Positions 11,096 to 58,693 of a stretch of 64,000 nt of DNA are shown here, in pieces. The stretch's first letter is position 1; each line of letters opens with the position of its first letter. A model generated the notes under the pieces. That model saw nothing but the letters and a program-made list of their open reading frames with translations. It did no database searches and was not told the DNA's origin. Made by a program: the position numbers and the translations under genes. Source of the stretch: Flavihumibacter soli (lineage in GTDB: Bacteria; Bacteroidota; Bacteroidia; Sphingobacteriales; Sphingobacteriaceae); the NCBI RefSeq assembly GCF_010692725.1, contig NZ_JAAFZB010000095.1, positions 248,001-312,000 on the forward strand, given 5' to 3'.

Positions 11096-13599
11096 TACTT
11101 CATACTCATCTTAGCTACTCGTTCTTCGAGTGATTCTGTGATCAGCTTTTCCCTGCTGAGGCCGTCTACCAGTATCGGGAAAGCAAAGGGAGTGGGCTGA
11201 TCGCTTTCCCGGATCACAACCTTCAGTTGCTGTATCCTTTGCAAGGCCGCCCGCAGCCTGTATTCTTCGAGTTGAAACTGCAGGGCCTCGTGGTAAGCCT
11301 GGCGAACCAGCACATTGTCTTTCTCATATTCGCTGAACACTTCGAACAGCAACGATGTAGATGCCTGCAGATGCCGGTTCTTCATCGCCTTCCCGGGAAA
11401 ACCTGTGAAAACCAGACCCGCGATATGAGCGATATCCCGAAAACGCCGGCGCGCCATTTCCGTTGCGTTCAGACTGTGCTGAATATCATCCAGGAGGTTG
11501 TCGATCGAAAAAAGGTCATTCTCCAGGGCCTTCTCCAGCATCACCTCGTCTTCGGTGAGCAGCTCAAAGCCGTAATCATTCATCGCGATAGAAAAGTTGG
11601 CCTTCTTTATTTTGGAGATTCGATAGGCAAAGATCGAGGCCATCCCTTCATGCACCAGCCTTCCTTCGAAGGGATAAAAGAACAGGTGGTGCCCGTCTCT
11701 CGAAGTATACTTCTCAATAAGAAATTCCGATTTACGCGGGATATGGGATAATTGCGCCTGCAGGTCAAACAGGGGCTGCAGGGCCACGATCTCTTCGTCT
11801 GTCTGCTTACCCTGGGCGACTTCATCGAGCTTGGTACGGAACGTCGCTGATAGCTGCGATGACAGTGGAATACGGCCGCCCATCCAGCTGGGAACCATAC
11901 CTTTTTTCTTAGCCGATTTCCGGACAAAGGCTGTCATATCCTTGATCTTAACAAGCTCCAAACTTCGCCCCGCGAAATAGAAGTTATCGCCGATCTTGAG
12001 CTTACTAATGAACGATTCCTCTATCGAACCCAGGTTGCCGCCACTCAGGAATTTCACCCGCATGCTCACATCCCCCACAATGGTACCCATGCTCAGGCGG
12101 TGGCGCATCGCCACGCGACGGTTGTTCACCTTGTAAAGGCCGTTCTCAATTTCAACCTTCAGGAACTCATCGTAGGCTGCCAGTGTCTTTCCTCCCTGTG
12201 TAATGAATTCAAGGATCTGCTGGTAGTCCCGCCGTTCAAGGTCGGCAAAGGCGTAGGTAGTTTTCAGTTCCTTATAGATCTGATCCGGATAGAACCCGTC
12301 TGAGACAGCCAGCGTTACGAGGTACTGCATCAAAACATCCATTGCCAGGACGATCGGATCCCGGCTTTCGAAGATCCCGTCGACGATCGCCTGTTTTAAA
12401 GCCGCTCCCTCCAGCAACTCCATCGAGTGTGTCGGAACGAACCAGGCTTTTGAGGTGGCACCGGGATGGTGACCGCTTCTGCCAGCCCGCTGCATGAAGC
12501 GGGCCACGCCTTTCGGACTGCCGATCTGTATGACCGTGTCGACCGGGCGAAAATCTACCCCAAGGTCAAGGCTGGACGTACAGACAACGATCTTCAGCAT
12601 CTCCTGGTGCAGGGCCTCTTCTACCCAACTGCGCAGTTCATTATCCAGCGAACCGTGGTGCATGGCAATAATTCCGGCATACTCCGGATACTTATCCAGG
12701 ATTGCCTGATACCATATCTCGGTCTGCGAACGGGTATTGGTGAAAATAAGAGTGGTCTTGCTGCTTTCAACAATATCGATCACCTGGGGCAAAAGCTTAA
12801 TACCCAAGTGCCCTGCCCATGAGAACTGTTCAATATTCTCCGGAATTACTGACTCGATGATGATCTTCTTACCCAGATTCGCCCGAACCATGCTGATCTG
12901 CTCTTTCTTAAAGTTGTTTCCCAATAACACCTCGCCCGCCTGCTCGAGGTTGCCTATAGTAGCAGAGATACCCCAGATGCGGAGGTTTGAGTTGGGAGTT
13001 GGGAGTGGAGAGTTTGGAGTAGGGAGTAGAGACTTCAGGGAATCAAGAGCTTTCAAAGTTTTGAGTCTCGAAAGCCCGAGTTCGAGCTGAACCCCTCTTT
13101 TAGTTCCTAAAAGCTCATGCCACTCGTCTATTACAACAGCCTGCAAAGTGGCAAACAGCTTTGGATATTCCTTCGTGGCCAGCATGATATGCAGGCTTTC
13201 CGGAGTAGTCAGCAGAATTTCCGGCTGCCGTCTCTTCAGTTCAGCTTTGTCCTTAGCCGATGTATCGCCGGTCCGGGTTGCTACCTTCCACGGTAGTCCC
13301 AGATCATCAACGACAGTTTGCATCGCTTTCCGGATATCATTGGTGAGCGCGCGCAGGGGCGTGATCCAGAGTAATTGCAAGCCGTTATTTTTGCGGGATT
13401 GGTAATCGTCAGGATGTTCATTAATATAAGCTGCGATGAACGGGAGAAACATGGCAAAGGTCTTACCGCTGCCGGTTGGAGCGTTCAGCAGACCGGAATC
13501 GCCCTTTAAAAAAGCATCCATCATCTCCTTCTGAAAAGCGAACTGCTCCCAGTTCCGGGTTACGAACCATTCAGAAATGACCTGCTGACCTTTATTCAT
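11080..13599 (-). CDS. Ligase-associated DEXH-box helicase (Lhr-like)
   Basis: ATP-dependent 3'-5' DNA helicase of the Lhr-core type found with an ATP-dependent ligase and an MBL exonuclease, presumed to act in DNA repair. Visible are the Walker A motif NAPTGSGKTFAMF (K46), the DEXH box VIDEWHELLGTKRG, motif III GISATIGN, and in the second RecA domain VCTSSLDLGVDF and FMQRAGRSGHHPGATSKAW. The C-terminal third is the Lhr-type winged-helix/core extension. The length (839) is at the upper end because a segment of about 20 residues is inserted between motifs II and III (roughly 187-208). It is rich in PTPNS repeats and encoded by a 7-bp tandem repeat. The gene lies 51 bp downstream of the ligase. 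Confidence 0.93.
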   Translation of the reverse strand: MNKGQQVISEWFVTRNWEQFAFQKEMMDAFLKGDSGLLNAPTGSGKTFAMFLPFIAAYINEHPDDYQSRKNNGLQLLWITPLRALTNDIRKAMQTVVDDLGLPWKVATRTGDTSAKDKAELKRRQPEILLTTPESLHIMLATKEYPKLFATLQAVVIDEWHELLGTKRGVQLELGLSRLKTLKALDSLKSLLPTPNSPLPTPNSNLRIWGISATIGNLEQAGEVLLGNNFKKEQISMVRANLGKKIIIESVIPENIEQFSWAGHLGIKLLPQVIDIVESSKTTLIFTNTRSQTEIWYQAILDKYPEYAGIIAMHHGSLDNELRSWVEEALHQEMLKIVVCTSSLDLGVDFRPVDTVIQIGSPKGVARFMQRAGRSGHHPGATSKAWFVPTHSMELLEGAALKQAIVDGIFESRDPIVLAMDVLMQYLVTLAVSDGFYPDQIYKELKTTYAFADLERRDYQQILEFITQGGKTLAAYDEFLKVEIENGLYKVNNRRVAMRHRLSMGTIVGDVSMRVKFLSGGNLGSIEESFISKLKIGDNFYFAGRSLELVKIKDMTAFVRKSAKKKGMVPSWMGGRIPLSSQLSATFRTKLDEVAQGKQTDEEIVALQPLFDLQAQLSHIPRKSEFLIEKYTSRDGHHLFFYPFEGRLVHEGMASIFAYRISKIKKANFSIAMNDYGFELLTEDEVMLEKALENDLFSIDNLLDDIQHSLNATEMARRRFRDIAHIAGLVFTGFPGKAMKNRHLQASTSLLFEVFSEYEKDNVLVRQAYHEALQFQLEEYRLRAALQRIQQLKVVIRESDQPTPFAFPILVDGLSREKLITESLEERVAKMSMKYQRSS
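12984..13032. repeat. Heptad array inside the helicase gene
   Basis: Seven consecutive 7-bp units (GGTTTGA, GTTGGGA twice, GTGGAGA, GTTTGGA, GTAGGGA, GTAGAGA). They lie in frame in the helicase gene and encode about residues 190-206, including the repeat LPTPNS. Two units, read as AGTTTGG and AGTnGGG, recur in the array at 57106. Confidence 0.85.
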
Positions 13600-37593: not shown

Positions 37594-38651
37594 ATTAAGA
37601 TCTTTTCAAGCATCTGAATATACAGCTCAACGCCCTCCCTGATCTCATCCAGGTAGATATATTCATCGGCCATGTGTGATCGGGCAGAGTCGCCAGGTCC
37701 TATTTTTAAGGAGGGAATGTCGAGCAGAGCCTGGTCGCTTGTTGTAGGCGATCCATAAGTCTTACGTCCCATCGCAATTCCTGCCTGTACCAGCGGGTGA
37801 TCAACACTTATTGAAGATGGTTTAAGCCTTACAGAACGGGGTGTTACTTTACAACTCACATTGTTTCGTATGATCTTGAGTACTTCCTCATTCCGGTATG
37901 CATCGGTGACCCGCACATCGACAGTGAATTTGCAGGTGGCCGGAACTACGTTATGCTGCGTACCTGCTTCGATAACGGTAACGCTCATTTTTACAGGGCC
38001 AAACAACGCAGATTCCTTCGCAAAACGATAATCGCGAAACCACTCTATATCCTTCAGTGCTTTGTAAATGGCATTATCACCCTCCTCGCGGGCGGCATGT
38101 CCCGCCTTACCTTCGGCAAGGCAGTCAAGAACCAGGAGGCCCCGCTCAGCGATTGCCAGATCCATCAGGGTGGGCTCGCCAACTACCGCAAACTCCAGTT
38201 CACCCAGTTCGGGCAGGATCAGTTCCAGTCCATTTTTTCCCGAAATTTCTTCTTCTGAACTTGCAGCCAGGCATAGGTTGTATTTCAGGTCATTCCGACT
38301 ATAGAAATGCAGGAATACAGCAATCAGGGATACCAGGCAGCCGCCGGCATCATTACTCCCTAAGCCGAAAAGTCTCCCATCCTCCATATGCGGTGAGAAG
38401 GGATCACGTGTATAAGCTGCATTTGGCTTAACAGTATCATGATGCGAGTTAAGCAAAATCGTAGGTTTTGCCGCATCAAAGAATTCATTATAGCACCAAA
38501 CATTATTTACCTTGCGGTGGGTTCTGACACCCTGCTCCTGCAGGTAGTTTTCAATTAATGTTGCTGTCTGATCTTCCTCCCTGCTGAATGATGCTGTGCT
38601 GATCAGTTTCTTTAAAAGTTCAATACTGTTAGTGGTCAGAATTTCAAGCAT
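37590..38651 (-). CDS. argE: M20 deacylase of arginine synthesis (ArgE-like)
   Basis: Zinc amidohydrolase that removes the acyl group from acyl-ornithine (or acyl-citrulline in Bacteroidota using the succinyl route). M20 motifs are ILLNSHHDTVKPN, LFGLGSNDAGGCLVSL and AASSEEEISGKNG; VIEAGTQHNVVPATCKFTVDV marks the dimerisation domain. Length 353 is short but typical of the Bacteroidota homologs. The start is 3 bp beyond the proC stop, and the gene ends overlapping the GNAT gene. With an acyl-specific transcarbamylase in the same operon, the substrate is probably acyl-citrulline. Confidence 0.9.
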   Translation of the reverse strand: MLEILTTNSIELLKKLISTASFSREEDQTATLIENYLQEQGVRTHRKVNNVWCYNEFFDAAKPTILLNSHHDTVKPNAAYTRDPFSPHMEDGRLFGLGSNDAGGCLVSLIAVFLHFYSRNDLKYNLCLAASSEEEISGKNGLELILPELGELEFAVVGEPTLMDLAIAERGLLVLDCLAEGKAGHAAREEGDNAIYKALKDIEWFRDYRFAKESALFGPVKMSVTVIEAGTQHNVVPATCKFTVDVRVTDAYRNEEVLKIIRNNVSCKVTPRSVRLKPSSISVDHPLVQAGIAMGRKTYGSPTTSDQALLDIPSLKIGPGDSARSHMADEYIYLDEIREGVELYIQMLEKILI

Positions 38652-38654
38652 TAT

Positions 38655-39473
38655 CTATCCTTTGGTATATAAGCCGCCCGCTTTCTCAGCGGATAATTTA
38701 ATCCCTTTAATCAGCGAGGAACTGAAACCATTATGTTCCATTTCATTTAACCCGGCGATGGTACATCCCTTGGGGGAGGTCACTTTGTCAATTTCATGCT
38801 CCGGATGACTCTGCATTTGCAGCAACAGATCAGCAGCGCCCTTGGCGGTTTGCACAGCCATCTTTAATGCTTCATCCGCATGAAATCCGATCTCTACGCC
38901 GCCCTGTGATGCCGCCCGGATGGCTCTTAAAAAGAATGCAACGCCGCAAGCACATAATGCCGTGGCAGAGGTCATCAACTCTTCATTTATCTTCACTACC
39001 GAGCCAACGGTTTCAAACATGGAGGTTACCATTTCAAGATTTTCAGCCGCGGCGTTATCCGACGCGATACAGGTCATTGACTGACCTATAGCAATTGCGG
39101 TATTAGGCATGGCCCGGATCACCTGAACGGGTTTCCCGAGCTCAGCGCGAATATTTTCGCAGCTCACGCCTGATACAACCGAGATGATCAGGTGCTTATC
39201 AGGATCGACCGCAGAACTGATCTCTTTTATTACCTGATTCAACTGCTGCGGCAAAACAGCTAAGATAACAACCGCTGCGTCAGAAACAGCCTGCAGGTTC
39301 TGATCGGTAACCTGATAGCCAGCCTCCGCCTGTGCAGACAGGTGCTGCAGATTTCGTCTAGTCAGGATGATCTGCCCGGGCAGGCTATAAGCCGACTTTA
39401 CTAAGCCTTTAGCGAGCGATAAACCAATGTTCCCACTTCCGATTATTGCAATATTCTTCGTTGCATCTTGCAT
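38655..39473 (-). CDS. proC: Pyrroline-5-carboxylate reductase
   Basis: Reduces pyrroline-5-carboxylate to proline with NAD(P)H. The Rossmann motif is IAIIGSGNIGLSLAKGLV, followed by VVILAVLPQQLNQVI and VIRAMPNTAIAIGQSMT. The C-terminal signature is VQTAKGAADLLLQM followed by KVTSPKGCTIAGL, all typical. The chosen start is ATG at 39473 (MQDATKNIAIIG); two codons upstream is a TTG. The gap to argB is 2 bases. Presence of proC inside an arg operon links ornithine/proline and arginine metabolism and is known from other Bacteroidota. Confidence 0.94.
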   Translation of the reverse strand: MQDATKNIAIIGSGNIGLSLAKGLVKSAYSLPGQIILTRRNLQHLSAQAEAGYQVTDQNLQAVSDAAVVILAVLPQQLNQVIKEISSAVDPDKHLIISVVSGVSCENIRAELGKPVQVIRAMPNTAIAIGQSMTCIASDNAAAENLEMVTSMFETVGSVVKINEELMTSATALCACGVAFFLRAIRAASQGGVEIGFHADEALKMAVQTAKGAADLLLQMQSHPEHEIDKVTSPKGCTIAGLNEMEHNGFSSSLIKGIKLSAEKAGGLYTKG

Positions 39474-39475
39474 AT

Positions 39476-40285
39476 TCAATGAGTTAAACGGGTTCCGAAA
39501 GTTTGTTTATTTAAGCAGGCAAGTTCATCAGACCTTCCTATGTAGACATCACTTACGCCTGCTTCAATTGCCTGGAATGCGTTATCCATTTTAGGGATCA
39601 TGCCCTCGTAAATGATTCCCCCTTCTTTAAGCTTATTGTAAGTTCCGGGGTTGATCTCACGTACTACAGAATCTTCATCCGATATGTCTGTTAGAACGCC
39701 CTTCTTTTCGAAGCAGTAGACCAGGCTTACCTCGTACATCTTTGCCATCGCAACGGCGATAACAGAGGCGATGGTATCGGCGTTCGTATTTAACAGATGC
39801 CCCTGGCCATCATGAGTGATCGCTGAAAAAACCGGGGAAAATCCGGCATCCAGCAATTTTGTCATCTGGTCACTATTCACGGAATCATCGTTAAGGTCCC
39901 CGACGAAGCCGTAATCGATCATTCCCTGTCCCGAAGGATGCGCCTTCAAGGGTCTTTTAGTGGCTGTTATTAAATTAGCATCTGCCCCGCTTAAACCTAT
40001 AGCGTTACAGCCCAAAGGCTGCAGACGAGCGACAATATCCTTATTGATCAGACCTGCATAGACCATCGTTACAACCCGCAGGCTTTCCTCGTCAGTAACC
40101 CGCCGTCCTTCGACAAGCTGTGCTTCAATTCCGAGGTCGGCAGCCAATTTAGTAGCTATCTTGCCACCCCCATGAACAAGGATCTTCAAACCTTCAAGAG
40201 CGGCGAAATCCTTAAGAAAAGCATCCAGGCTTACCGGGTTATCGATCACGTTCCCGCCTATTTTAATAACAGTTAAGCGGTTCAT
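39476..40285 (-). CDS. argB: Acetylglutamate kinase
   Basis: Phosphorylates the gamma-carboxyl of N-acyl-glutamate in arginine synthesis. Amino-acid kinase motifs: TVIKIGGNVIDNP (K), ILVHGGGKIATKLAADLG, GLSGADANLI and VFSAITHDGQGHLLNTNADT. Length about 269 is normal. The ATG at 40285 is taken because it overlaps the argF stop as ATGA and starts directly at MNRLTVIKIGG; the longer frame to 40333 reads through argF coding sequence. Coupled translation with argF is likely. Confidence 0.95.
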   Translation of the reverse strand: MNRLTVIKIGGNVIDNPVSLDAFLKDFAALEGLKILVHGGGKIATKLAADLGIEAQLVEGRRVTDEESLRVVTMVYAGLINKDIVARLQPLGCNAIGLSGADANLITATKRPLKAHPSGQGMIDYGFVGDLNDDSVNSDQMTKLLDAGFSPVFSAITHDGQGHLLNTNADTIASVIAVAMAKMYEVSLVYCFEKKGVLTDISDEDSVVREINPGTYNKLKEGGIIYEGMIPKMDNAFQAIEAGVSDVYIGRSDELACLNKQTFGTRLTH

Positions 40286-41280
40286 GAAGGCAATTTTTCG
40301 AGCATCCGTTTTAGTACAGTCTGCGCAGCCCAAAGGCGGTTTCCTGCTTCTTCTATAACGAGTGAGTGCGATCCATCCAGAATTTCGGATGAAAGCTCAA
40401 GGTCCCGGCGTACCGGCAGGCAATGCATCACCTTTGCTGCATTCGTGAACTTAAGTTTTTCCTGGGTCAACATCCAATCCTGGCCATCACCTAATATCTT
40501 CCCATAATCGCTGTAACTCGACCAGTTTTTGACATAGATAAAATCAGCATCAGCCAGGGCTTCATCCTGCTTATAGATGATGCTAGCCCCCTTTGTAAAT
40601 TCCTCAGCCAGCTCATAGCCTTCCGGATAGGTGATCACAAAATCAACTAATCCTTCTGCCTGAGCCCTGCACATCCATTCTGAAAAAGAATTTGGAACCG
40701 CCTGCGGCAGAGGCTTCACATGCGGAGCCCAGGTCAGAACTACTTTAGGCTTCGCCTTTACATGACCTTCACCAGAGAAATAAGGAGAGTTATTGGCATT
40801 CTCCATAATGGTGATCAGATCGGCAAAACTCTGCAAAGGATGACGGGTAGCGCTCTCTAAACTGACTACCGGCACATTACAAAACTTAACGAATTTATTA
40901 AAAAGGTCCTCGCTGTAATCTTCGTCCCGATCCTGAAGTTTCGGAAAAGAACGGAAACCCAGTATATCACAATACTGCCCCATTACCGCTGCTGCTTCCC
41001 GGATGTGCTCCACGGTTGTTCCGTTCATTACCACACCATCCTGTGTTTCCAGCGCCCAGCCTTCCTTATCCAAATTCATCACCATCACATTCATTCCCAG
41101 GTTCAATGCAGCCTTCTGTGTGCTTAAACGGGTACGAAGGCTTGGATTAAGGAATACAAGTCCTAAAGTCTTGTTCTTCCCAAGCTGCTTATGCTGGTAA
41201 GGCGATTCTTTTAGTGAAAGTGCCTCCTGTACAATATCCTGTAAATTTTCTACGTCGTTTACTGAAAAGAATAGTTTCAT
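40282..41280 (-). CDS. argF': N-acyl-ornithine carbamoyltransferase, probably succinyl type
   Basis: Transfers the carbamoyl group to acylated ornithine, giving acyl-citrulline. The carbamoyl-phosphate motif is FLNPSLRTRLSTQ (STR-like) and the later LESATRHPLQSFADL; the extended VVMNGTTVEHIREAAAVMGQ is typical of the acyl-ornithine enzymes. At position 90 the residue is Val, whereas acetyl-type enzymes have Glu and the Bacteroides succinyl enzyme Pro there. That favours succinylornithine. The annotated symbol is used for the Bacteroidota family. The stop overlaps the start of argB. 332 residues, complete. Confidence 0.9.
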   Translation of the reverse strand: MKLFFSVNDVENLQDIVQEALSLKESPYQHKQLGKNKTLGLVFLNPSLRTRLSTQKAALNLGMNVMVMNLDKEGWALETQDGVVMNGTTVEHIREAAAVMGQYCDILGFRSFPKLQDRDEDYSEDLFNKFVKFCNVPVVSLESATRHPLQSFADLITIMENANNSPYFSGEGHVKAKPKVVLTWAPHVKPLPQAVPNSFSEWMCRAQAEGLVDFVITYPEGYELAEEFTKGASIIYKQDEALADADFIYVKNWSSYSDYGKILGDGQDWMLTQEKLKFTNAAKVMHCLPVRRDLELSSEILDGSHSLVIEEAGNRLWAAQTVLKRMLEKLPS

Positions 41281-41288
41281 GCTTTTTG

Positions 41289-41344
41289 AGCTAAAAGGTG
41301 AAAGGGTAAAGGATAAAGCTAAAAGGTTAAAGCTGAAAGCTATT
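41289..41344. repeat. Heptad array, left side of first S23 gene
   Basis: Eight successive 7-bp units of the type AGnnnAA (AGCTAAA, AGGTGAA, AGGGTAA, AGGATAA, AGCTAAA, AGGTTAA, AGCTGAA, AGCTATT) in strict phase. The last unit provides the stop codon of the S23 gene (41340-41342). Reverse-complement units TTATCCT and TTCAGCT recur in the array at 41765-41873, so the two arrays are inverted. Confidence 0.85.
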
Positions 41345-41696
41345 TCCTGATTGCTTTTATAAATCCAATGATCATGGCTTTTACTTCACTGATCTTTTGA
41401 TAGATTTCTATGTAAATATCTTCATTAAAATAATTTAATTCTTTAGCCAAAAGGCATGCATATTCCAGTTCATGAACTGATCCCAGAGAATTATCAAGAA
41501 AATGAGCAAAGTCTTTATCTGTATATCTTCCTGCCCCTTCAGCAATATTTAACGGAACTGAATACGCCGCCCTTTTAATTTGAGAATACAAATCATACTT
41601 TTCGTGAGATGGTAAATTGGGTAAAATGTGCTGGTACACATGCAGCACCATTAAGTGTGCCTTTTCCCAAACCTCAAGTTTTGTATAGTCTCTCAT
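41340..41696 (-). CDS. Four-helix-bundle protein of the 23S rRNA intervening-sequence family (S23)
   Basis: 118-residue all-helical protein of the S23/IVP family, related to Avd of diversity-generating retroelements. The family opening YTKLEVWEKAHLMVL, the middle IKRAAYSVPLNIAEGAGRYT and FAHFLDNSLGSVHELEYACL are all present. No function is established for the solitary bacterial members. It is inserted between argF and argD in operon direction, flanked on both sides by 7-bp tandem repeats in inverted orientation, with its stop codon lying in the left array. Confidence 0.9.
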   Translation of the reverse strand: MRDYTKLEVWEKAHLMVLHVYQHILPNLPSHEKYDLYSQIKRAAYSVPLNIAEGAGRYTDKDFAHFLDNSLGSVHELEYACLLAKELNYFNEDIYIEIYQKISEVKAMIIGFIKAIRK

Positions 41697-41764
41697 AAAA
41701 CCATATTCTGTTTTTATTCGCTCTTATATTGCTACGGTTATTTGATTCTCATTTGCGCCCTTAC

Positions 41765-41873
41765 CTTTATCTTTTCTGCTTTAAGCTTTATCCTTTCTGC
41801 TTTACGCTTTCAGCTCTGCTTTATCCTTTCTGCTTTAAGCTTTCTGCTTTAAGCTCTCAGCTTCCGCTTTAAG
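41765..41873. repeat. Heptad array, right side of first S23 gene, running into argD
   Basis: About sixteen 7-bp units of the type CTTTnnn (CTTTATC, CTTTAAG, CTTTCTG recurring) from 41765 to 41873, interrupted by one 5-base and one 6-base unit. The array contains the argD stop at 41835-41837, so the last dozen argD codons are repeat units. It is the inverted counterpart of the array at 41289. Confidence 0.85.
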
Positions 41874-42995
41874 TACTTTCCCAAATGCTTCCAGGAACAA
41901 GTCAGCATCTGCTTTGGAAAGGTTCAAAGCCGGCAATAAGCGAATAATATTCGGCTTAGCTTCACCTGTAAAAATATGATGCTTAAACAGCAGGTCCTTC
42001 TTTACGTGCGATAGATCTTCAGGGAGTTCTATCCCGATCATCAGACCCATACCCCGAACTTCCTTCACCTGTTCAAATTTTTCCAGCTCACTCATTAAAT
42101 AACCGCCCACCGCTGCTGCGTTCTCCATCAGGTTTCCCTGCTCTATCACTTCCAGAACCGCCAATGCTGCTGCACAGGCCAGGTGATTCCCTCCGAAGGT
42201 GGTTCCAAGCATGCCGTGCCAGGGTTTAAACTTCGGTGCAATAGCTACGCCGCCAATCGGGAAACCATTGCCCATACCCTTGGCCATCGTATAAATATCA
42301 GCATTTACGCCTGCATAGTCATGCGAATAGAATTTCCCACTCCTGCCGTATCCGGACTGAACGCTGTCTGCTATATACACAGCATTATACTCATCGCAAA
42401 GCGACCTTATTTTTTGAAGAAAGCTATCCGAAGCAAGGCGAATACCACCTACACCCTGAATGCCTTCAATTATGACAGAGGAAATTTCATTTCCGTAATC
42501 AGCGAATGCCTGCTCCAGGGCAGCCTCATCATTATGCGGGAGGAAAGTAACATTGTCCGTTTCATTCGCAGGGGCAACGATTTTCGGATTATCAGTTGCT
42601 GCGACTGCCAGTGAAGTTCTTCCATGGAAAGCTCCGGAAAAAGCGATGATCTTTTTGCGATTGTTATAGAAAGACGCCAGCTTTAAAGCGTTCTCATTCG
42701 CTTCCGCGCCGGAATTACACAGGAACAATTGATAATCTTCCTTACCCGATACTTTCCCTAATTTCTCGGCAAGCTCCACCTGTAAAGGGATCTTAACAGA
42801 GTTGGAATAGAAGCCAACCTTGTTCAGCTGGTCTGTGATCCGCTTTACATAATGCGGATGTGTGTGCCCTATTGAAATAACGGCATGTCCGCCGTACATA
42901 TCCAGGTACTGGATATTATTCTCATCCCAAACGGAGCTACCGCTTGCCTTAACAATTTCAATATTATTGATCGGATAAACGTCAAATAATTCCAT
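41835..42995 (-). CDS. argD: Acetylornithine (acyl-ornithine) aminotransferase
   Basis: PLP enzyme forming acyl-ornithine from acyl-glutamate semialdehyde. Class III aminotransferase motifs: FCNSGAEANENALKLA (with LFLCNSG), IAFSGAFHGRTSLAV, YIADSVQSGYGRSG and the PLP lysine in YTMAKGMGNGFPIGGVAIA. The substrate-loop LGTTFGGNHLACAAALAVLE is present. Length is 386. The C-terminal residues KAEAESLKQKA are encoded by the heptad array at 41765-41873, so the native tail has probably been replaced or extended by repeat sequence. It follows argC and precedes argF in the operon. Confidence 0.95.
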   Translation of the reverse strand: MELFDVYPINNIEIVKASGSSVWDENNIQYLDMYGGHAVISIGHTHPHYVKRITDQLNKVGFYSNSVKIPLQVELAEKLGKVSGKEDYQLFLCNSGAEANENALKLASFYNNRKKIIAFSGAFHGRTSLAVAATDNPKIVAPANETDNVTFLPHNDEAALEQAFADYGNEISSVIIEGIQGVGGIRLASDSFLQKIRSLCDEYNAVYIADSVQSGYGRSGKFYSHDYAGVNADIYTMAKGMGNGFPIGGVAIAPKFKPWHGMLGTTFGGNHLACAAALAVLEVIEQGNLMENAAAVGGYLMSELEKFEQVKEVRGMGLMIGIELPEDLSHVKKDLLFKHHIFTGEAKPNIIRLLPALNLSKADADLFLEAFGKVLKAEAESLKQKA

Positions 42996-43000
42996 CAGTT

Positions 43001-43035
43001 AGTTATAAGTAATACGTAATAAGTCATAAGTAAAA
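43001..43035. repeat. Heptad array, left side of second S23 gene
   Basis: Five 7-bp units: AGTTATA, AGTAATA, CGTAATA, AGTCATA, AGTAAAA, immediately after the argD start region (argD starts at 42995). The reverse complement of the array at 43406-43447 has the same pattern, ataagta/tacgta. Confidence 0.8.
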
Positions 43036-43038
43036 ATA

Positions 43039-43401
43039 TCAAGTTTTGACAGTTCGTACTTTGTTGATCAACGAAATGAGCATCGCTTTTATCTCGTTAA
43101 TAGCTTCATTTATTTTCACATGTTCCGCATCGGCGAGATATCCGAGGTCTTTGGAAAGCAAAAGAAAATATTCTGTTTCGTTCGCTGATCCCAAAGCTAT
43201 ATTAAGAAAGTTGGCCAAGTCAGACCGGGAGTTCTTTCCGCACCCTTCTGCAATATTCGCTGGAATTGAAGATGCAGCCCTTCTTAGCTGGCTCGTCAGA
43301 CTATACATTTCGTCTTTAGGGTAACCTTTACTGACCTGATAAACAAATAATGTGAGCTGATGTGCCTTAGCCCAAACTTTTAACTCTTTATAGTTTTGCA
43401 T
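43039..43401 (-). CDS. Second four-helix-bundle S23 protein
   Basis: 120-residue S23-family protein. Shared family parts are YKELKVWAKAHQLTLFVYQ, LRRAASSIPANIAEGCGKNS and LANFLNIALGSANETEYFLL. It is divergent from the first copy (about 40% similar by eye), so it is not a recent duplicate. It lies between argC and argD, in operon direction, and is flanked by inverted 7-bp arrays of a different unit from those around the first copy. Function unknown. Confidence 0.88.
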   Translation of the reverse strand: MQNYKELKVWAKAHQLTLFVYQVSKGYPKDEMYSLTSQLRRAASSIPANIAEGCGKNSRSDLANFLNIALGSANETEYFLLLSKDLGYLADAEHVKINEAINEIKAMLISLINKVRTVKT

Positions 43402-43405
43402 CGAT

Positions 43406-43447
43406 CACGTATAACTTATTACTTACTACGTACAACTTACAACTCAA
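43406..43447. repeat. Heptad array, right side of second S23 gene
   Basis: Six 7-bp units: CACGTAT, AACTTAT, TACTTAC, TACGTAC, AACTTAC, AACTCAA. Inverted relative to the array at 43001. Further degenerate units (GCAGAAG, CCTTCAG, CCTTCCC) continue to about 43471, up to the argC stop. Confidence 0.8.
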
Positions 43448-43472
43448 AATGCAGAAGCCTTCAGCCTTCCCC

Positions 43473-44468
43473 CTAAAAAGCTGCTGCCTTCAGCTTCAGC
43501 CCCCTTGTCTCTTCCAATCCAAACATCAGATTCATATTCTGTACTGCTTGCCCGCTGGCACCTTTTAACAGGTTATCGGTTATGCTCACAATGAATAATT
43601 TATCTCCATGCTTTTCCAGGTGGATCAGGCATTTATTCGTATTTACTACCTGTTTCAGGTCGATATTCTTTTTACTGATATGTGTAAACGGATGCCCTTT
43701 ATAAAAGCTTTCATAAAGGTTATAGGCATCCTCAAGCGACAGATTACTTTCGGTGTAGATCGCTGCAAAAATGCCTCTTGCGAAGTCGCCGCGCTGGGGT
43801 ATGAAATTAATTGAAGTGTTTTGTGAAAATCCCTCTTGCAGTTGGCTTAAGCTCTCTCCAATTTCATGCAGATGCTGGTGGTCAAAGGCTTTGTATGCTG
43901 ATAAGTTATTGTTCCTCCAGCTGAAGTGCGAAGTCGTAGAAAGGCCCTGCCCAGCACCGGTAGAACCGGTAGTCGCGTTTATGTGAACCTCACTCTGTAA
44001 TAGACCCGCTTTGGCAAGGGGCAATAGAGCTAATTGTATACAGGTTGCAAAGCAACCGGGATTGGCAATATTTTGGGAGGCAGCGATCTTATCCCGATTT
44101 AATTCCGGGAGACCGTAAATAAAGCTCTTGCTGTTAAGTCCTGAATTTCCGGCCAGTCGAAAGTCCTGCGAAAGGTCGATGATCCTGATGCGGTCATCTA
44201 TTGCGTTTGAGCTGAGAAATTTCTTCGAGTCGCCATGCCCAAGGCACAAAAATAAAACGTCAATGTCTGATGAAAGCTGATCAGTAAATTTCAGATCGGT
44301 ATCTCCAAAGAGATCTGCATGTACGTCATATAGATGATTACCGGCATTGCTGCTGCTATGCACAAAGGCGATTTCTACATCAGGATGATTAATTAATATC
44401 CGTAATAGTTCTCCACCGGTATAACCTGCACCACCCGCAATTCCTGCCCTGATCTTTTTGTCGCTCAT
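43473..44468 (-). CDS. argC: N-acetyl-gamma-glutamyl-phosphate reductase
   Basis: Reduces acyl-glutamyl phosphate to the semialdehyde, with an NADPH-binding N terminus (IAGGAGYTGGELLRIL, residues 11-26) and a catalytic Cys in IANPGCFATCIQLALLPL. STTSHFSWRNNNLSAYKAF and FIPQRGDFARGIFAAIYTE are further family elements. Length 331 is normal. It lies between argG and the second S23 gene. The last residues and stop are next to a degenerate heptad stretch (43451-43478). Confidence 0.95.
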   Translation of the reverse strand: MSDKKIRAGIAGGAGYTGGELLRILINHPDVEIAFVHSSSNAGNHLYDVHADLFGDTDLKFTDQLSSDIDVLFLCLGHGDSKKFLSSNAIDDRIRIIDLSQDFRLAGNSGLNSKSFIYGLPELNRDKIAASQNIANPGCFATCIQLALLPLAKAGLLQSEVHINATTGSTGAGQGLSTTSHFSWRNNNLSAYKAFDHQHLHEIGESLSQLQEGFSQNTSINFIPQRGDFARGIFAAIYTESNLSLEDAYNLYESFYKGHPFTHISKKNIDLKQVVNTNKCLIHLEKHGDKLFIVSITDNLLKGASGQAVQNMNLMFGLEETRGLKLKAAAF

Positions 44469-44492
44469 GCTTCAAGTCCTCTACTTATCTAA

Positions 44493-44557
44493 TCCTTAAC
44501 CTTCAACCCTCCATTCCTTCTGCCTTCAACCTTCCCACCTTCAACCTTCTACCTTCT
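44493..44557. repeat. Heptad array between argC and argG
   Basis: A mixture of mostly 7-bp (some 6- or 8-bp) units of the type CCTTCAA/CCTTCTA fills the gap between argC and argG, ending 2 bases before the argG stop. No gene lies within it, so it could be a solo array left by an element of the same kind. Confidence 0.7.
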
Positions 44558-44558
44558 T

Positions 44559-45749
44559 TTACTTTCCCTCATTAACCTTGTTCCAGATCATCACCTGGTT
44601 ACCAAATATTTTCGAAAAGCCTTTCACATCTTCGCCGCTCCAGGTGTTATTCATCTCGCCGTAGCTGCCGAACTTATTCGACATCAGGTCATGCTCTGAT
44701 TCAATACCGATCACCTGGAAACGATAGGGATGTAAACGGACAAACACTTTACCGGAAACCATTGCCTGGGTATCTGCCAGGAAAGCTTCGATATTGCGCA
44801 TGATAGGATCATGAAACTGACCTTCGTGAAGCCAGTTACCATAAAATGAGCCCAGCTGATCTTTCCAGCTTAACTGCCACTTGGTTAAGGTATGCTTCTC
44901 TAAAGTATGATGTGCTTTGATGATAATGATCGGTGCCGCCGCCTCGAAGCCCACACGGCCTTTGATCCCAATGATCGTATCACCTACATGGATATCGCGG
45001 CCGATGCCATAGGGCTGAGCAATGGCCTGTAATTTCTGGATCGCGTCTACAGGATTGTAACTATGTCCGTTTATTCCAACCAACTCACCTTTTTCGAACA
45101 GGAGTTCAATATCGCGGCTTCCGGTCTCGGTTACCTGTGTTGGCCATGCCTCTTCAGGAAGGGTTTGATTCGAGGTGAGGGTTTCCTTACCGCCGACAGA
45201 TGTACCCCAAATACCTTTATTGATTGAATATCTTGCTTTTTCCGCACTGTATTCCACGCCGTGTTTCTGCAGATACTCTATCTCCGCTTCGCGGCTCAAT
45301 TTCAAATCCCGGATCGGCGTAATGATCTCCACTCCGGGAATTAGTATATTAAATATCATGTCAAAACGCACCTGGTCGTTACCGGCCCCGGTGCTGCCAT
45401 GAGCTACATAATCCGCTCCTATCTTCTTTACATAATTGGCAATGGCAGTTGCCTGGCTTACACGCTCTGCACTTACTGATAGCGGGTAGGTCGCGTTCTT
45501 CAGAACATTTCCGAATACCAGGAATTTGATGCAGGACTGGTAATAGTTTTGTGTTTCGTCAATCACCGCATGTGAAGCAACGCCCAAGGCATAAGCCCTT
45601 TCTTCGATCTGCTTCAGTTCTTCCGCTGAGAATCCGCCGGTGTTCACGAGCACCGAATGCACTTCCAGATCCCGGTCCTGTGACAGGTAGATCGAACAAA
45701 ATGAGGTATCAAGGCCGCCGCTAAAGGCTAAAACTACTTTCTTCTTCAT
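44559..45749 (-). CDS. argG: Argininosuccinate synthase
   Basis: Joins citrulline and aspartate with ATP to argininosuccinate. The N-terminal PP-loop is VLAFSGGLDTSFCSIYL, and YVAHGSTGAGNDQVRFDM, the later ARYSINKGIWGTSVGGKE and WTGEDVKGF-like C-terminal part follow. The ATG at 45749 is chosen (MKKKVVLAFSGG); a longer frame opens at 45764. Length is about 396, normal. In an Arg-limited cell it may be the controlled step, as it lies second in the operon, 26 bp after the GNAT gene. Confidence 0.96.
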   Translation of the reverse strand: MKKKVVLAFSGGLDTSFCSIYLSQDRDLEVHSVLVNTGGFSAEELKQIEERAYALGVASHAVIDETQNYYQSCIKFLVFGNVLKNATYPLSVSAERVSQATAIANYVKKIGADYVAHGSTGAGNDQVRFDMIFNILIPGVEIITPIRDLKLSREAEIEYLQKHGVEYSAEKARYSINKGIWGTSVGGKETLTSNQTLPEEAWPTQVTETGSRDIELLFEKGELVGINGHSYNPVDAIQKLQAIAQPYGIGRDIHVGDTIIGIKGRVGFEAAAPIIIIKAHHTLEKHTLTKWQLSWKDQLGSFYGNWLHEGQFHDPIMRNIEAFLADTQAMVSGKVFVRLHPYRFQVIGIESEHDLMSNKFGSYGEMNNTWSGEDVKGFSKIFGNQVMIWNKVNEGK

Positions 45750-45775
45750 AATATTAAACAGCAATTATTAAGGGT

Positions 45776-46429
45776 TTAGAAAAACGGGACGATAGTCTTC
45801 ACCGATTTCTTAATTTTTTCTTCAATACGCTCCAACAAGGTGGCTTTGTGGGAGATCTTTTTCATCTTCTCTTCAAATTCCTTTGCTTTCTCTTCGGGAT
45901 CCCAGAGCATAGCAGTACACATGCAATTCTTGCGGTCTTTGCTCTTCAGGATATCGTAATTGACACAGCTCTGGCAGCCTTTCCAGAATTCTTCATCCTG
46001 GGTGAGTTCCGAATAGGTTACAGGTTCATAACCCAGCTCCGAGTTGATTTTCATCACTGCCAGACCGGTTGTTAGTCCAAATATCTTTGCTTCAGGATAT
46101 TTCTGGCGGGAAAGTTCGAATACTCGGTATTTGATCGCTTTCGCCAAACCGCAGTTACGGAATACAGGACTCACGATCAAACCGGAGTTGGCCACAAACT
46201 GTCCGTGGCCCCAGGTTTCGATATAACAGAACCCGGCCCACCTGCCATCATTGTGCAGCGCTATCACGGCTTTACCTTCCAGCATCTTGCCGGCTACATA
46301 TTCCGGTGAACGGCGGGCAATACCAGTACCTCTGGCTTTTGCAGATTCAGCCATCTCATCACAGATCGTATCTGCAAAATGAATGTGCTCTTTTGTTGCG
46401 GGGATGACAACAAATTCGTTTTCTTTCAT
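45776..46429 (-). CDS. GNAT acyltransferase, probable N-acyl-glutamate synthase
   Basis: 217-residue GNAT protein that opens the arginine operon, the position at which Bacteroidota place their N-acyl-glutamate synthase in lieu of ArgA. The CoA motif region is VSPVFRNCGLAKAIKYRVFE, preceded by GRWAGFCYIETWGHGQFVANS. A Cys-rich insert, CQSCVNYDILKSKD followed by NCMC, gives C-x2-C-x13-C-x-C near residue 155, which could bind zinc. A charged helical tail follows. The specificity (acetyl or succinyl) is not fixed by sequence; the succinyl-type transcarbamylase in the operon suggests succinyl. Regulated by the structured leader upstream. Confidence 0.75.
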   Translation of the reverse strand: MKENEFVVIPATKEHIHFADTICDEMAESAKARGTGIARRSPEYVAGKMLEGKAVIALHNDGRWAGFCYIETWGHGQFVANSGLIVSPVFRNCGLAKAIKYRVFELSRQKYPEAKIFGLTTGLAVMKINSELGYEPVTYSELTQDEEFWKGCQSCVNYDILKSKDRKNCMCTAMLWDPEEKAKEFEEKMKKISHKATLLERIEEKIKKSVKTIVPFF

Positions 46430-57133: not shown

Positions 57134-57164
57134 CACTGCTCTCCGATACGCATCTTCCACTTAT

Positions 57165-57192
57165 ATCTCAAATCTAATATCTCATATCTCTA
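57165..57192. repeat. Heptad array upstream of pyrH, part 2
   Basis: Four units ATCTCAA, ATCTAAT, ATCTCAT, ATCTCTA, ending 3 bases before the pyrH start codon. Confidence 0.75.
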
Positions 57193-58630: not shown

Positions 58631-58693
58631 GATTAACCACCTATCCACCTTATCTAACTACTAACTACTAACTACTAAATACTAAGTACTTTA
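58631..58693. repeat. Heptad array abutting the ABC exporter start
   Basis: Nine 7-bp units in unbroken phase: GATTAAC, CACCTAT, CCACCTT, ATCTAAC, TACTAAC twice, TACTAAA, TACTAAG, TACTTTA. The array ends 2 bases before the ATG at 58696. Confidence 0.85.

What the first reader, a model, noticed from the sequence alone, without database searches (positions are those of the whole stretch)
41289..41873. S23 four-helix-bundle gene flanked by inverted 7-bp tandem arrays inside the arg operon
The S23 gene at 41340-41696 is bracketed by two arrays of a 7-bp unit in strict phase. The left array reads AGnnnAA, the right one CTTTnnn, and the reverse complement of the left shares exact units with the right (TTATCCT, TTCAGCT). 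The S23 stop codon lies in the left array and the argD stop in the right one. This is the layout of an insertion unit with terminal inverted arrays, inserted exactly between argF and argD without breaking either. S23 proteins have no known function outside rRNA intervening sequences, and I know of no description of such an element.
Basis: partly seen in the sequence, partly recalled or inferred. Interest (0 to 1): 0.78.

Follow-up and report, generated by a model that had tools for sequence, protein, structure and literature searches.

The report
Gene-and-repeat elements of seven-base units
A small bacterial protein gene of unknown function is framed by mirror-image runs of seven-base repeats here and in many other bacteria, and the two appear to form one mobile or selfish element that may explain scattered seven-base repeats that had no known partner.

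Summary
Both S23 (PF05635) genes in the window and 7 of 8 in the genome have strict 7-bp arrays on both flanks; of 161 loci from many phyla 62 have them on both sides and 67 on one (lag-8 control: 8 and 9). The arms match as inverted repeats in 50 of 55 loci. Heptad type follows S23 type for close proteins, also between phyla. At argC-argD of two relatives with ~95% identical flanks, gene and both arms are swapped together, with borders at the argC stop and just before the argD start. Empty and decayed junctions exist. Solo arrays of the same types are scattered in S23-bearing genomes and nearly absent without S23 (31 against 2 in 400 kb each).

Best reading: an S23 intervening-sequence-type selfish element between protein genes, whose S23 protein acts on its own heptads in cis and in trans, analogous to REP/RAYT. 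Co-inheritance is shown; trans action rests on correlation; movement and biochemistry are inferred. Phage Avd relatives lack the S23 invariant residues (one keeps one), and the host has no detectable reverse transcriptase. Nine library searches found no general description of this pairing; one single case (Coxiella) is in print.

The parts
41340..41696 (-). S23a: four-helix-bundle protein gene (PF05635 23S_rRNA_IVP), 118 aa, MRDY type
   Evidence: all nine conserved S23 residues checked are present
41289..41342 (+). 3' arm of the S23a element (heptads AAAGNNN on the + strand, i.e. reverse complement in S23 sense); touches the S23a stop codon
41765..41863 (-). 5' arm of the S23a element (AAAGCNN in S23 sense); contains the last codons and the stop of argD
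43039..43401 (-). S23b: second S23 gene, 120 aa, MQNY type, between argD and argC
43001..43036 (+). 3' arm of the S23b element (AGTAATA-type heptads)
43404..43474 (-). 5' arm of the S23b element (GTTATAAG type, outer part GAAGGCT type), next to the argC stop
41835..42995 (-). argD-like gene between the two elements
40282..41280 (-). argF-like gene downstream of the S23a element
43473..44468 (-). argC-like gene upstream of the S23b element
   Evidence: gene name from recall
44490..44557 (-). solo heptad array (GGTTGAA/GAAGG type) upstream of the argC-like gene, no S23
12982..13032 (+). solo heptad array (GAGTTGG/GAGTAGG type), by eye the type of the arms of S23 gene L006
57160..57190 (-). solo heptad array (GAGATAT/GAGATTT type), by eye the type of the arms of S23 gene L003
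58654..58690 (-). solo heptad array (TAGTTAG/AGTATTT type)

Best explanation
S23a with its two inverted heptad arms is one complete copy of an S23-heptad element, a small selfish or mobile element of the intervening-sequence type that sits between protein genes instead of inside rRNA. Shown by comparison: the S23 gene and both arms form one inherited cassette; close S23 types share their heptad type; cassettes often run from the stop codon of one gene to just before the start of the next, usually in sense; they can be absent, decayed or replaced whole; and sampled genomes with S23 carry solo arrays and empty inverted pairs, while sampled genomes without S23 have almost none. Inferred: the S23 protein, a pentamer of four-helix bundles in its solved relatives, recognises its own heptad arms and promotes their spread and upkeep in cis and in trans, so that solo arrays are non-autonomous copies and relics. 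Placement at a stop codon, with the array often supplying a new stop, and read-through expression make insertions tolerable. The chemistry of movement is not known; it probably uses host replication or repair functions, since only S23 lies between the arms and this host has no detectable reverse transcriptase.
For: Flank periodicity: pooled match peaks at lags 7, 14 and 21 within 120 bp of S23 genes, no lag-7 peak at 400-1000 bp or in the ORF (161 of 163 loci; 25 of 29 Gammaproteobacteria and 23 of 29 cyanobacteria loci). Per locus: 62 both sides, 67 one side, 32 none of 161; lag 8: 8, 9, 144. One representative for each of 103 clusters with unrelated neighbours: 52 both, 31 one, 20 none. Arm coherence: inverted similarity 0.80 against 0.42 direct and 0.395 between loci; inverted higher in 50 of 55. 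Type coupling among 105 loci, pairs with related neighbours left out: protein identity 0.6 or more, n=43, similarity 0.681 against null 0.428, 0 of 2000 permutations; cross-phylum at 0.55 or more, n=60, 0.558 against 0.429, 0 of 2000. Cassette swap with borders at the argC stop and just before the argD start. Empty and decayed sites. Dependence: 2 arrays in 400 kb of 6 genomes without S23 against 31 in 400 kb of 6 with S23, lag-8 control 1 and 8; same genus 0 in 180 kb (0 S23), 6 in 160 kb (1 S23), 17 in 60 kb (11 S23). Type-specific: 5 of 5 genomes with an S23 at least 69% identical to L002 have AGGTATC-array matches, 4 of 56 others do, p 2e-5. Placement: array start within 10 nt of the upstream stop in 73 of 114. 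Clusters in sense to both neighbours 68, antisense to both 14, p 1e-9. Q38 R41 S45 N49 E52 E75 are 99-100% conserved in 163 non-redundant S23 proteins; three phage Avd proteins lack all six and a fourth phage relative keeps only E52.
Against: No new insertion, excision or target duplication was seen; many S23 loci are positional orthologues. 32 of 161 loci show no array at the threshold, and whole S23 types (L070/L074, L088/L090) and the own-genome copy L008 seem array-less. Presence of S23 and of arrays is a correlation in a small, hand-picked set of genomes; some of the 31 arrays are A/T-rich low-complexity runs, and several of the 17 in G021 are near-identical copies. The five L002-type genomes lie in two genera. 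The match of solo arrays to the own genome's S23 arms (0.830 against 0.731, sd 0.053, highest 0.838 of 200 random sets) is only suggestive. Over all cross-phylum pairs the linear correlation was weak (r 0.063; 117 of 2000 permutations reached it), and at identity 0.5 or more 25 of 2000 reached the observed value: coupling holds for close protein types only. Phylum labels are mine, from record titles of partly metagenomic bins. The swap at argC-argD could have come by homologous recombination through the flanking genes. Conservation of R, S, N and E is partly ascertained by the peptide patterns and the expression used.
Confidence: 0.62

Rival explanations
1. RNA-level element: the transcribed arms fold into a long hairpin that is cut by RNase III, as in rRNA intervening sequences; S23 binds that RNA. 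The arms are kept because the RNA structure lets the element be cut out of the host message.
For: S23 is related to Avd of DGRs (phrog_3206); the Coxiella 23S rRNA intervening sequence is cut by RNase III and has heptameric repeats just upstream of S23 (PMC4990558, abstract and sections 3 and 16); sense orientation in 68 clusters against 14.
Against: Arm-to-arm differences show no excess of G-U compatible changes: 53 against 85 of the A-C type over 51 loci (the arms were aligned by identity), so base-paired RNA is not visibly selected. Many arrays have no partner arm.
Confidence: 0.25
2. REP-like host function: heptad hairpins serve as transcript ends or stabilisers at gene 3' ends and S23 is a tamed regulator that binds them.
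For: On C95 63 of 69 arrays are intergenic by crude gene calling; convergent gaps hold 18 in 12.1 kb, divergent gaps 4 in 18.9 kb. A similar placement is reported for GGGAATC arrays of Xanthomonas (PMC4692102 Discussion).
Against: Patchy presence, decay and whole replacement at the same junction and genomes that do without both speak against a needed host function. Avoidance of divergent gaps also follows from harm at promoters.
Confidence: 0.12
3. Array first: heptad arrays arise on their own by replication slippage, and S23 genes insert into existing arrays.
For: Arrays far outnumber S23 genes (69 arrays and 4 S23 genes on 787 kb).
Against: Arrays are nearly absent in the sampled stretches of genomes without S23; arm type follows protein type even at one and the same junction; flanks show no peaks at other lags.
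Confidence: 0.06
4. Reverse-transcriptase-driven element: S23 works like Avd with a host reverse transcriptase that copies heptads.
For: Homology with Avd.
Against: The own genome has 0 RVT_1 matches, with 69 arrays on one contig alone; RVT_1 occurs in 17 of 40 genomes with S23 and 9 of 21 without. Phage Avd proteins lack the S23 invariant residues and their flanks stay below the array threshold.
Confidence: 0.04

Closest known systems
23S rRNA intervening sequences (IVS) with an S23 ORF (Leptospira, Coxiella and others)
   Same: Same protein family; complementary ends around one small ORF; sporadic distribution; the Coxiella IVS also has short heptameric repeats upstream of S23 (PMC4990558)
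   Different: Here the element lies between protein genes, not in rRNA; its ends are tandem heptad arrays; S23-less arrays are scattered in the genome
REP sequences with RAYT (Y1) proteins
   Same: Works alike: a gene flanked by inverted copies of an extragenic repeat, dispersed copies without the gene, repeat type coupled to protein type, avoidance of divergent promoters (REP facts recalled)
   Different: S23 is not a Y1 nuclease; the repeat is a degenerate 7-bp tandem array, not one palindrome; a Y1 gene of this genome has its own separate palindromes
Orphan heptamer arrays: cyanobacterial STRR, GGGAATC of Xanthomonas, TAACTGA of Beggiatoaceae
   Same: 7-bp tandem units, intergenic, close to gene ends, some in inverted pairs (PMC4692102 passages and Discussion; PMC4679880 passages and section 10; STRR recalled)
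   Different: In the parts I read none was linked to an S23 gene; here cyanobacterial S23 genes are flanked by 7-bp arrays. The Xanthomonas motif was not found in my sample of 274 Gammaproteobacteria, so that link is untested
Avd of diversity-generating retroelements
   Same: Related four-helix-bundle protein (phrog_3206)
   Different: Avd lies next to or one gene from a reverse transcriptase, lacks the S23 invariant residues, and its flanks stay below the array threshold
Foldback elements of eukaryotes (recalled)
   Same: Long inverted ends made of short tandem repeats, with or without a gene between them
   Different: Eukaryotic, with larger units; recalled, not compared here

Membership tests
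S23 / 23S_rRNA_IVP protein family (PF05635) | match over the curated cut-off | tested here: met
   120.7 and 133.1 bits against a cut-off of 33.8
S23 / 23S_rRNA_IVP protein family (PF05635) | sequence relation to solved five-chain structures 2gsc and 2rld | tested here: met
   profile match E 3e-32 and 1.3e-14, five chains each; no structure was predicted
rRNA intervening sequence (IVS) | inserted inside an rRNA gene | tested here: not met
   between arg genes; no Rfam match at gathering score in 38000-46000
rRNA intervening sequence (IVS) | complementary ends around the ORF | tested here: met
   inverted heptad arms
rRNA intervening sequence (IVS) | excision by RNase III | not testable with these tools
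   needs RNA work; the wobble test gave no support for selected RNA pairing
DGR with Avd | neighbouring reverse transcriptase | tested here: not met
   0 RVT_1 matches in the whole genome
DGR with Avd | Avd sequence type at the S23 invariant positions | tested here: not met
   S23a and S23b have all six; three phage Avd proteins have none, a fourth phage relative only E52 (alignment at low identity)
REP / RAYT | Y1 (HUH) nuclease as partner protein | tested here: not met
   the partner matches PF05635 only
REP / RAYT | dispersed extragenic repeats of the type that flanks the gene | tested here: met
   solo arrays, AGGTATC type coupled to L002-type S23; the general own-genome match is only suggestive
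Transposon or MITE | terminal inverted repeats | tested here: met
Transposon or MITE | target site duplication | not tested
   no close pair of filled and empty sites at hand; the swap is filled against filled
Transposon or MITE | recognised transposase or recombinase in the element | tested here: not met
   only S23 lies between the arms

The most novel reading that the evidence does not exclude
S23 proteins are the missing partners of heptameric tandem repeats scattered through bacterial genomes (the arrays of Bacteroidota, those beside cyanobacterial S23 genes, and probably other described heptamers). Together they form a separate class of repeat-spreading element that uses neither a known transposase nor a reverse transcriptase: a four-helix-bundle protein with a nearly invariant polar set (QxxRxxxSxxxNxxE ... 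SxxE), which may itself be catalytic, recognises and propagates a type-specific seven-base unit, lands at gene ends next to stop codons, and the rRNA intervening sequences with S23 are the special case of such elements that landed in rRNA.
Probability: 0.42. Interest if true: 0.95.

Novelty: new variant of a known kind. Interest (0 to 1): 0.86.

Why it matters
It would give a function-bearing context to a widespread uncharacterised small protein family (over the cut-off in 113 of 148 sampled genomes of the window's phylum; 35 of 79 cyanobacteria; 52 of 274 Gammaproteobacteria) and a cause for heptamer repeats that were described without a partner. It ties rRNA intervening sequences, Avd relatives and intergenic repeats into one story, and it makes a clear test possible: does each S23 protein bind and spread its own seven-base unit? 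Array length also changes the ends of host genes, so it bears on genome evolution and gene prediction.

Tried and rejected
RNA-hairpin selection by wobble asymmetry: not supported, 53 G-U compatible against 85 others. Reverse-transcriptase partner: no association. Y1 transposase as partner: associated with S23 (22 of 40 against 1 of 21, p 8e-5), but G021 with 11 S23 genes has none and a Y1 gene of this genome carries its own palindromes; set aside as a shared liking for permissive genomes, which I did not test. Stop codons in all frames as the reason for the period of seven: only a weak excess in 5' arms, 63 against 55.4, sd 4.4. S23 remnants in the 46 array-bearing intergenic regions of C95: none beyond the edges of S23 genes. 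Link to the Xanthomonas GGGAATC arrays: 0 of 274 sampled genomes had the pattern, so untested. Defence system: no PADLOC match for five S23 proteins. Phage carriage: no match at E 1e-5 with L001; with L009 at relaxed E 14 records, the best at 8e-7, the rest weak, several annotated Avd. Structure model: tool off. Calothrix plasmid pair: by annotation the shared region is larger than the element, so no borders gained.

Rows dropped before counting: 2 of 163 S23 loci (L023 and L180, ORF too short by script); 17 of 79 loci L296-L374 (no motif, no start codon or short flank); of the loci, 190 with both neighbours called were clustered; 198 proteins without internal stop and of 95-160 aa entered, 163 after removing near-duplicates. 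The genomes for one search were picked by me because their contig numbers were usable, with evenly spaced stretches.

Full report
WHAT IS THERE. The S23 gene at 41340-41696 (minus strand) belongs to PF05635, 23S_rRNA_IVP. It is flanked by arrays with a period of seven: left 41289-41342, right about 41765-41863. Lag-7 scores are 22 and 30; the best other lags give 8 and 7. Read in the S23 sense, both arms carry the same heptads, one inverted against the other. A second S23 gene, 43039-43401, lies in the next junction (argD-argC) with inverted arms of another heptad type. In the whole genome there are 8 S23 genes; 7 have arrays on both sides, one (L008) has none.

GENERALITY. I collected S23 loci from the family, the phylum, 80 loci from named genomes of many phyla and 18 viral contigs. 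With the 8 of the own genome these are 163, of which 161 were usable. Pooled, the 120 bp on each side show peaks at lags 7, 14 and 21; regions 400-1000 bp away and the ORF show no lag-7 peak. At a threshold of 9 within 150 bp, 62 loci have arrays on both sides, 67 on one, 32 on none; with lag 8 the numbers are 8, 9 and 144. Gammaproteobacteria (25 of 29 loci) and cyanobacteria (23 of 29) give lag-7 values of 0.41-0.43, against 0.23-0.32 at lags that are not multiples of seven. After grouping 190 loci with related neighbour genes into 103 clusters, one representative each gives 52 both, 31 one, 20 none. On contig C95, 4 of 4 S23 genes and 9 of 673 other genes have arrays on both flanks; matching inverted pairs under 600 bp apart enclose either S23 or no gene, while five wider pairs in array-dense parts enclose other genes.

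THE ARMS BELONG TOGETHER AND WITH THE GENE. In 55 loci with two good arms, the similarity of the 5' arm with the reverse complement of the 3' arm averages 0.80, against 0.42 in direct orientation and 0.395 between loci; inverted is higher in 50 of 55, and the own partner arm ranks first of all in 53%. Heptad type follows protein type for close proteins. Leaving out pairs with related neighbour genes, pairs at 60% protein identity or more have heptad similarity 0.681 against 0.428 expected (n=43, 0 of 2000 permutations); cross-phylum pairs at 55% or more have 0.558 against 0.429 (n=60, 0 of 2000); cross-phylum pairs at 50% or more reach 0.467, met by 25 of 2000. Below about 50% identity there is no coupling, and the linear correlation over all cross-phylum pairs is weak (r 0.063; 117 of 2000 permutations reached it). 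Phylum labels come from record titles, some of them metagenomic bins.

CASSETTE SWAP, EMPTY SITES AND RELICS. Of 20 genomes of the genus searched with argD, 18 (the window's own included) have a close argD, which gives 17 relatives, L039-L055. In the argC-argD junction 16 can be read (not L050): 11 carry an S23 gene of the MQN type with GTTATAA-like arms; two (L049, L053) carry an MRDY-type S23, the type of the window's S23a, with AAAGC-type arms; one (L042) keeps the end of an S23 gene and one arm; two (L040, L047) have neither. L053 and L052 are 94.6% identical in argC and 96.1% in argD, yet what lies between the argC stop codon and a few bases before the argD start differs, gene and both arms. 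In the argD-argF junction only the window's genome has an intact S23; L043, L044 and L050 have a truncated beginning of S23 with array pieces; 13 relatives have a short junction without array; L055 has a longer gap without array or recognisable S23 by eye.

SOLO ARRAYS AND DEPENDENCE ON S23. C95 (786,830 bases) holds 69 lag-7 arrays, against 1, 19, 4, 7 and 4 for lags 5, 8, 10, 11 and 13; most are far from its 4 S23 genes. 63 of 69 are intergenic; convergent gaps are favoured and divergent ones avoided. Six genomes of the phylum without S23 gave 2 arrays in 400 kb, six with S23 gave 31 in 400 kb (lag-8 control 1 and 8; a few of the 31 are A/T-rich runs; genomes chosen by hand). Within the genus: 0 in 180 kb with no S23, 6 in 160 kb with one, 17 in 60 kb with eleven, the last with several near-identical copies. 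All 5 genomes of 61 with an S23 at least 69% identical to L002 contain AGGTATC-array matches (213, 54, 3, 2, 1 match positions, up to 2 mismatches); 4 of the other 56 do, with 1 or 2 each (p 2e-5). The five lie in two genera, so they are not independent. Solo arrays on C95 match the own genome's S23 arms at 0.830 against 0.731 for sets from other genomes (sd 0.053, highest 0.838 of 200), suggestive only.

PLACEMENT. In 73 of 114 loci the 5' array starts within 10 nt of the upstream stop codon; uniform placement in the gap would put about 18% within the first 11 positions, a rough yardstick. Of 94 within 20 nt, 45 have the stop inside or overlapping the array, and TAG is the stop in 44, against 63 of 268 control ORFs in the same loci (p 4e-5). 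S23 is in sense with both neighbours in 68 clusters and antisense to both in 14 (p 1e-9), with 14 convergent and 7 divergent mixed cases.

THE PROTEIN. Six polar positions (Q38, R41, S45, N49, E52, E75 of S23b) are 99-100% conserved in 163 non-redundant proteins, while identity to S23b is 40-68% in a sample of 40 and identity to S23a falls to 21% in a more diverse set of 13. Part of the set was found with patterns that include some of these residues, so the figure is somewhat inflated. A similar motif, GxxRxxxSxxxNxxE, was noted for S23 genes in cas loci (PMC3936711, passage). Three phage Avd proteins lack all six residues, a fourth phage relative near a reverse transcriptase keeps only E52, and the flanks of all four stay below the array threshold. 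The solved relatives 2gsc and 2rld have five chains; PMC4990558 describes the Xanthomonas structure as a homopentamer.

MECHANISM. Shown: one unit, type coupling for close proteins, association at genome level, cassette replacement, placement. Inferred: S23 recognises the arms and drives spread or upkeep in trans. The arm differences show no sign of selected RNA pairing, and no reverse transcriptase is detectable in the host, so I lean towards action on DNA with host replication or repair functions, without being able to name the reaction.

LITERATURE. Nine searches of the open library found no paper that links S23 with heptad arrays in general. PMC4990558 (abstract, sections 3 and 16) reports heptameric repeats upstream of S23 in the Coxiella IVS, a single case. 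PMC4692102 (passages, Discussion) and PMC4679880 (passages, section 10) describe heptamer arrays without a partner. PMC11270868 (passages) reports S23 ORFs scattered over several rRNA insertion sites of CPR bacteria. PMC8700078 (passages) only lists four-helix-bundle genes. Most subscription journals and all preprints are outside this library, so earlier mention elsewhere cannot be excluded.

CHECK. On re-reading the calls I corrected the Avd comparison (one of four phage relatives keeps E52), the counts of relatives (17, not 18) and the wording on CPR insertions; none of this changes the odds.

Noticed in passing
window 43001-43474: A second S23 gene with its own inverted heptad arms of another type in the argD-argC junction, not listed in the finding.
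   Followed up: yes
window 12982-13032, 44490-44557, 57160-57190, 58654-58690: Solo heptad arrays without an S23 gene; the first is placed inside an 839-aa ORF by crude gene calling.
   Followed up: partly
G000 contig C95 726-786 kb (L228-L231): A stretch dense in AGGTATC/AGCTATC arrays in which several genes have arrays on both sides, with a recurring spacer like AACCGGAGGGATAAACAAGCTG beside the arrays.
   Followed up: partly
L232, about G000:C96:914354: A Y1 transposase gene with its own palindromes CTCCGCCTT..AAGGCGGAG; Y1 and S23 co-occur across the family (22 of 40 against 1 of 21 genomes).
   Followed up: partly
L274 and L275 (Calothrix brevissima plasmids): An S23 gene beside a phage-type integrase gene in the same arrangement on two plasmids of one strain; the first has arrays on both sides, and two other cyanobacterial plasmid S23 genes (L379, L380) have them upstream.
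   Followed up: partly
G058 (L257-L260), control columns: The reversed control pattern rings 83 times in G058, by its letters another heptad type (GTCCATAG); G029 of the same genus, without S23, has one such control hit.
   Followed up: no
window 41835-41863: The C-terminus of argD is encoded by the heptad array (tail AESLKQKA) and differs from relatives.
   Followed up: partly
L070, L074, L088, L090: S23 genes of the MSHFRKILVW and MSTFRDLLIW types lack heptad arrays although the protein is intact; possibly types that lost their arms.
   Followed up: no
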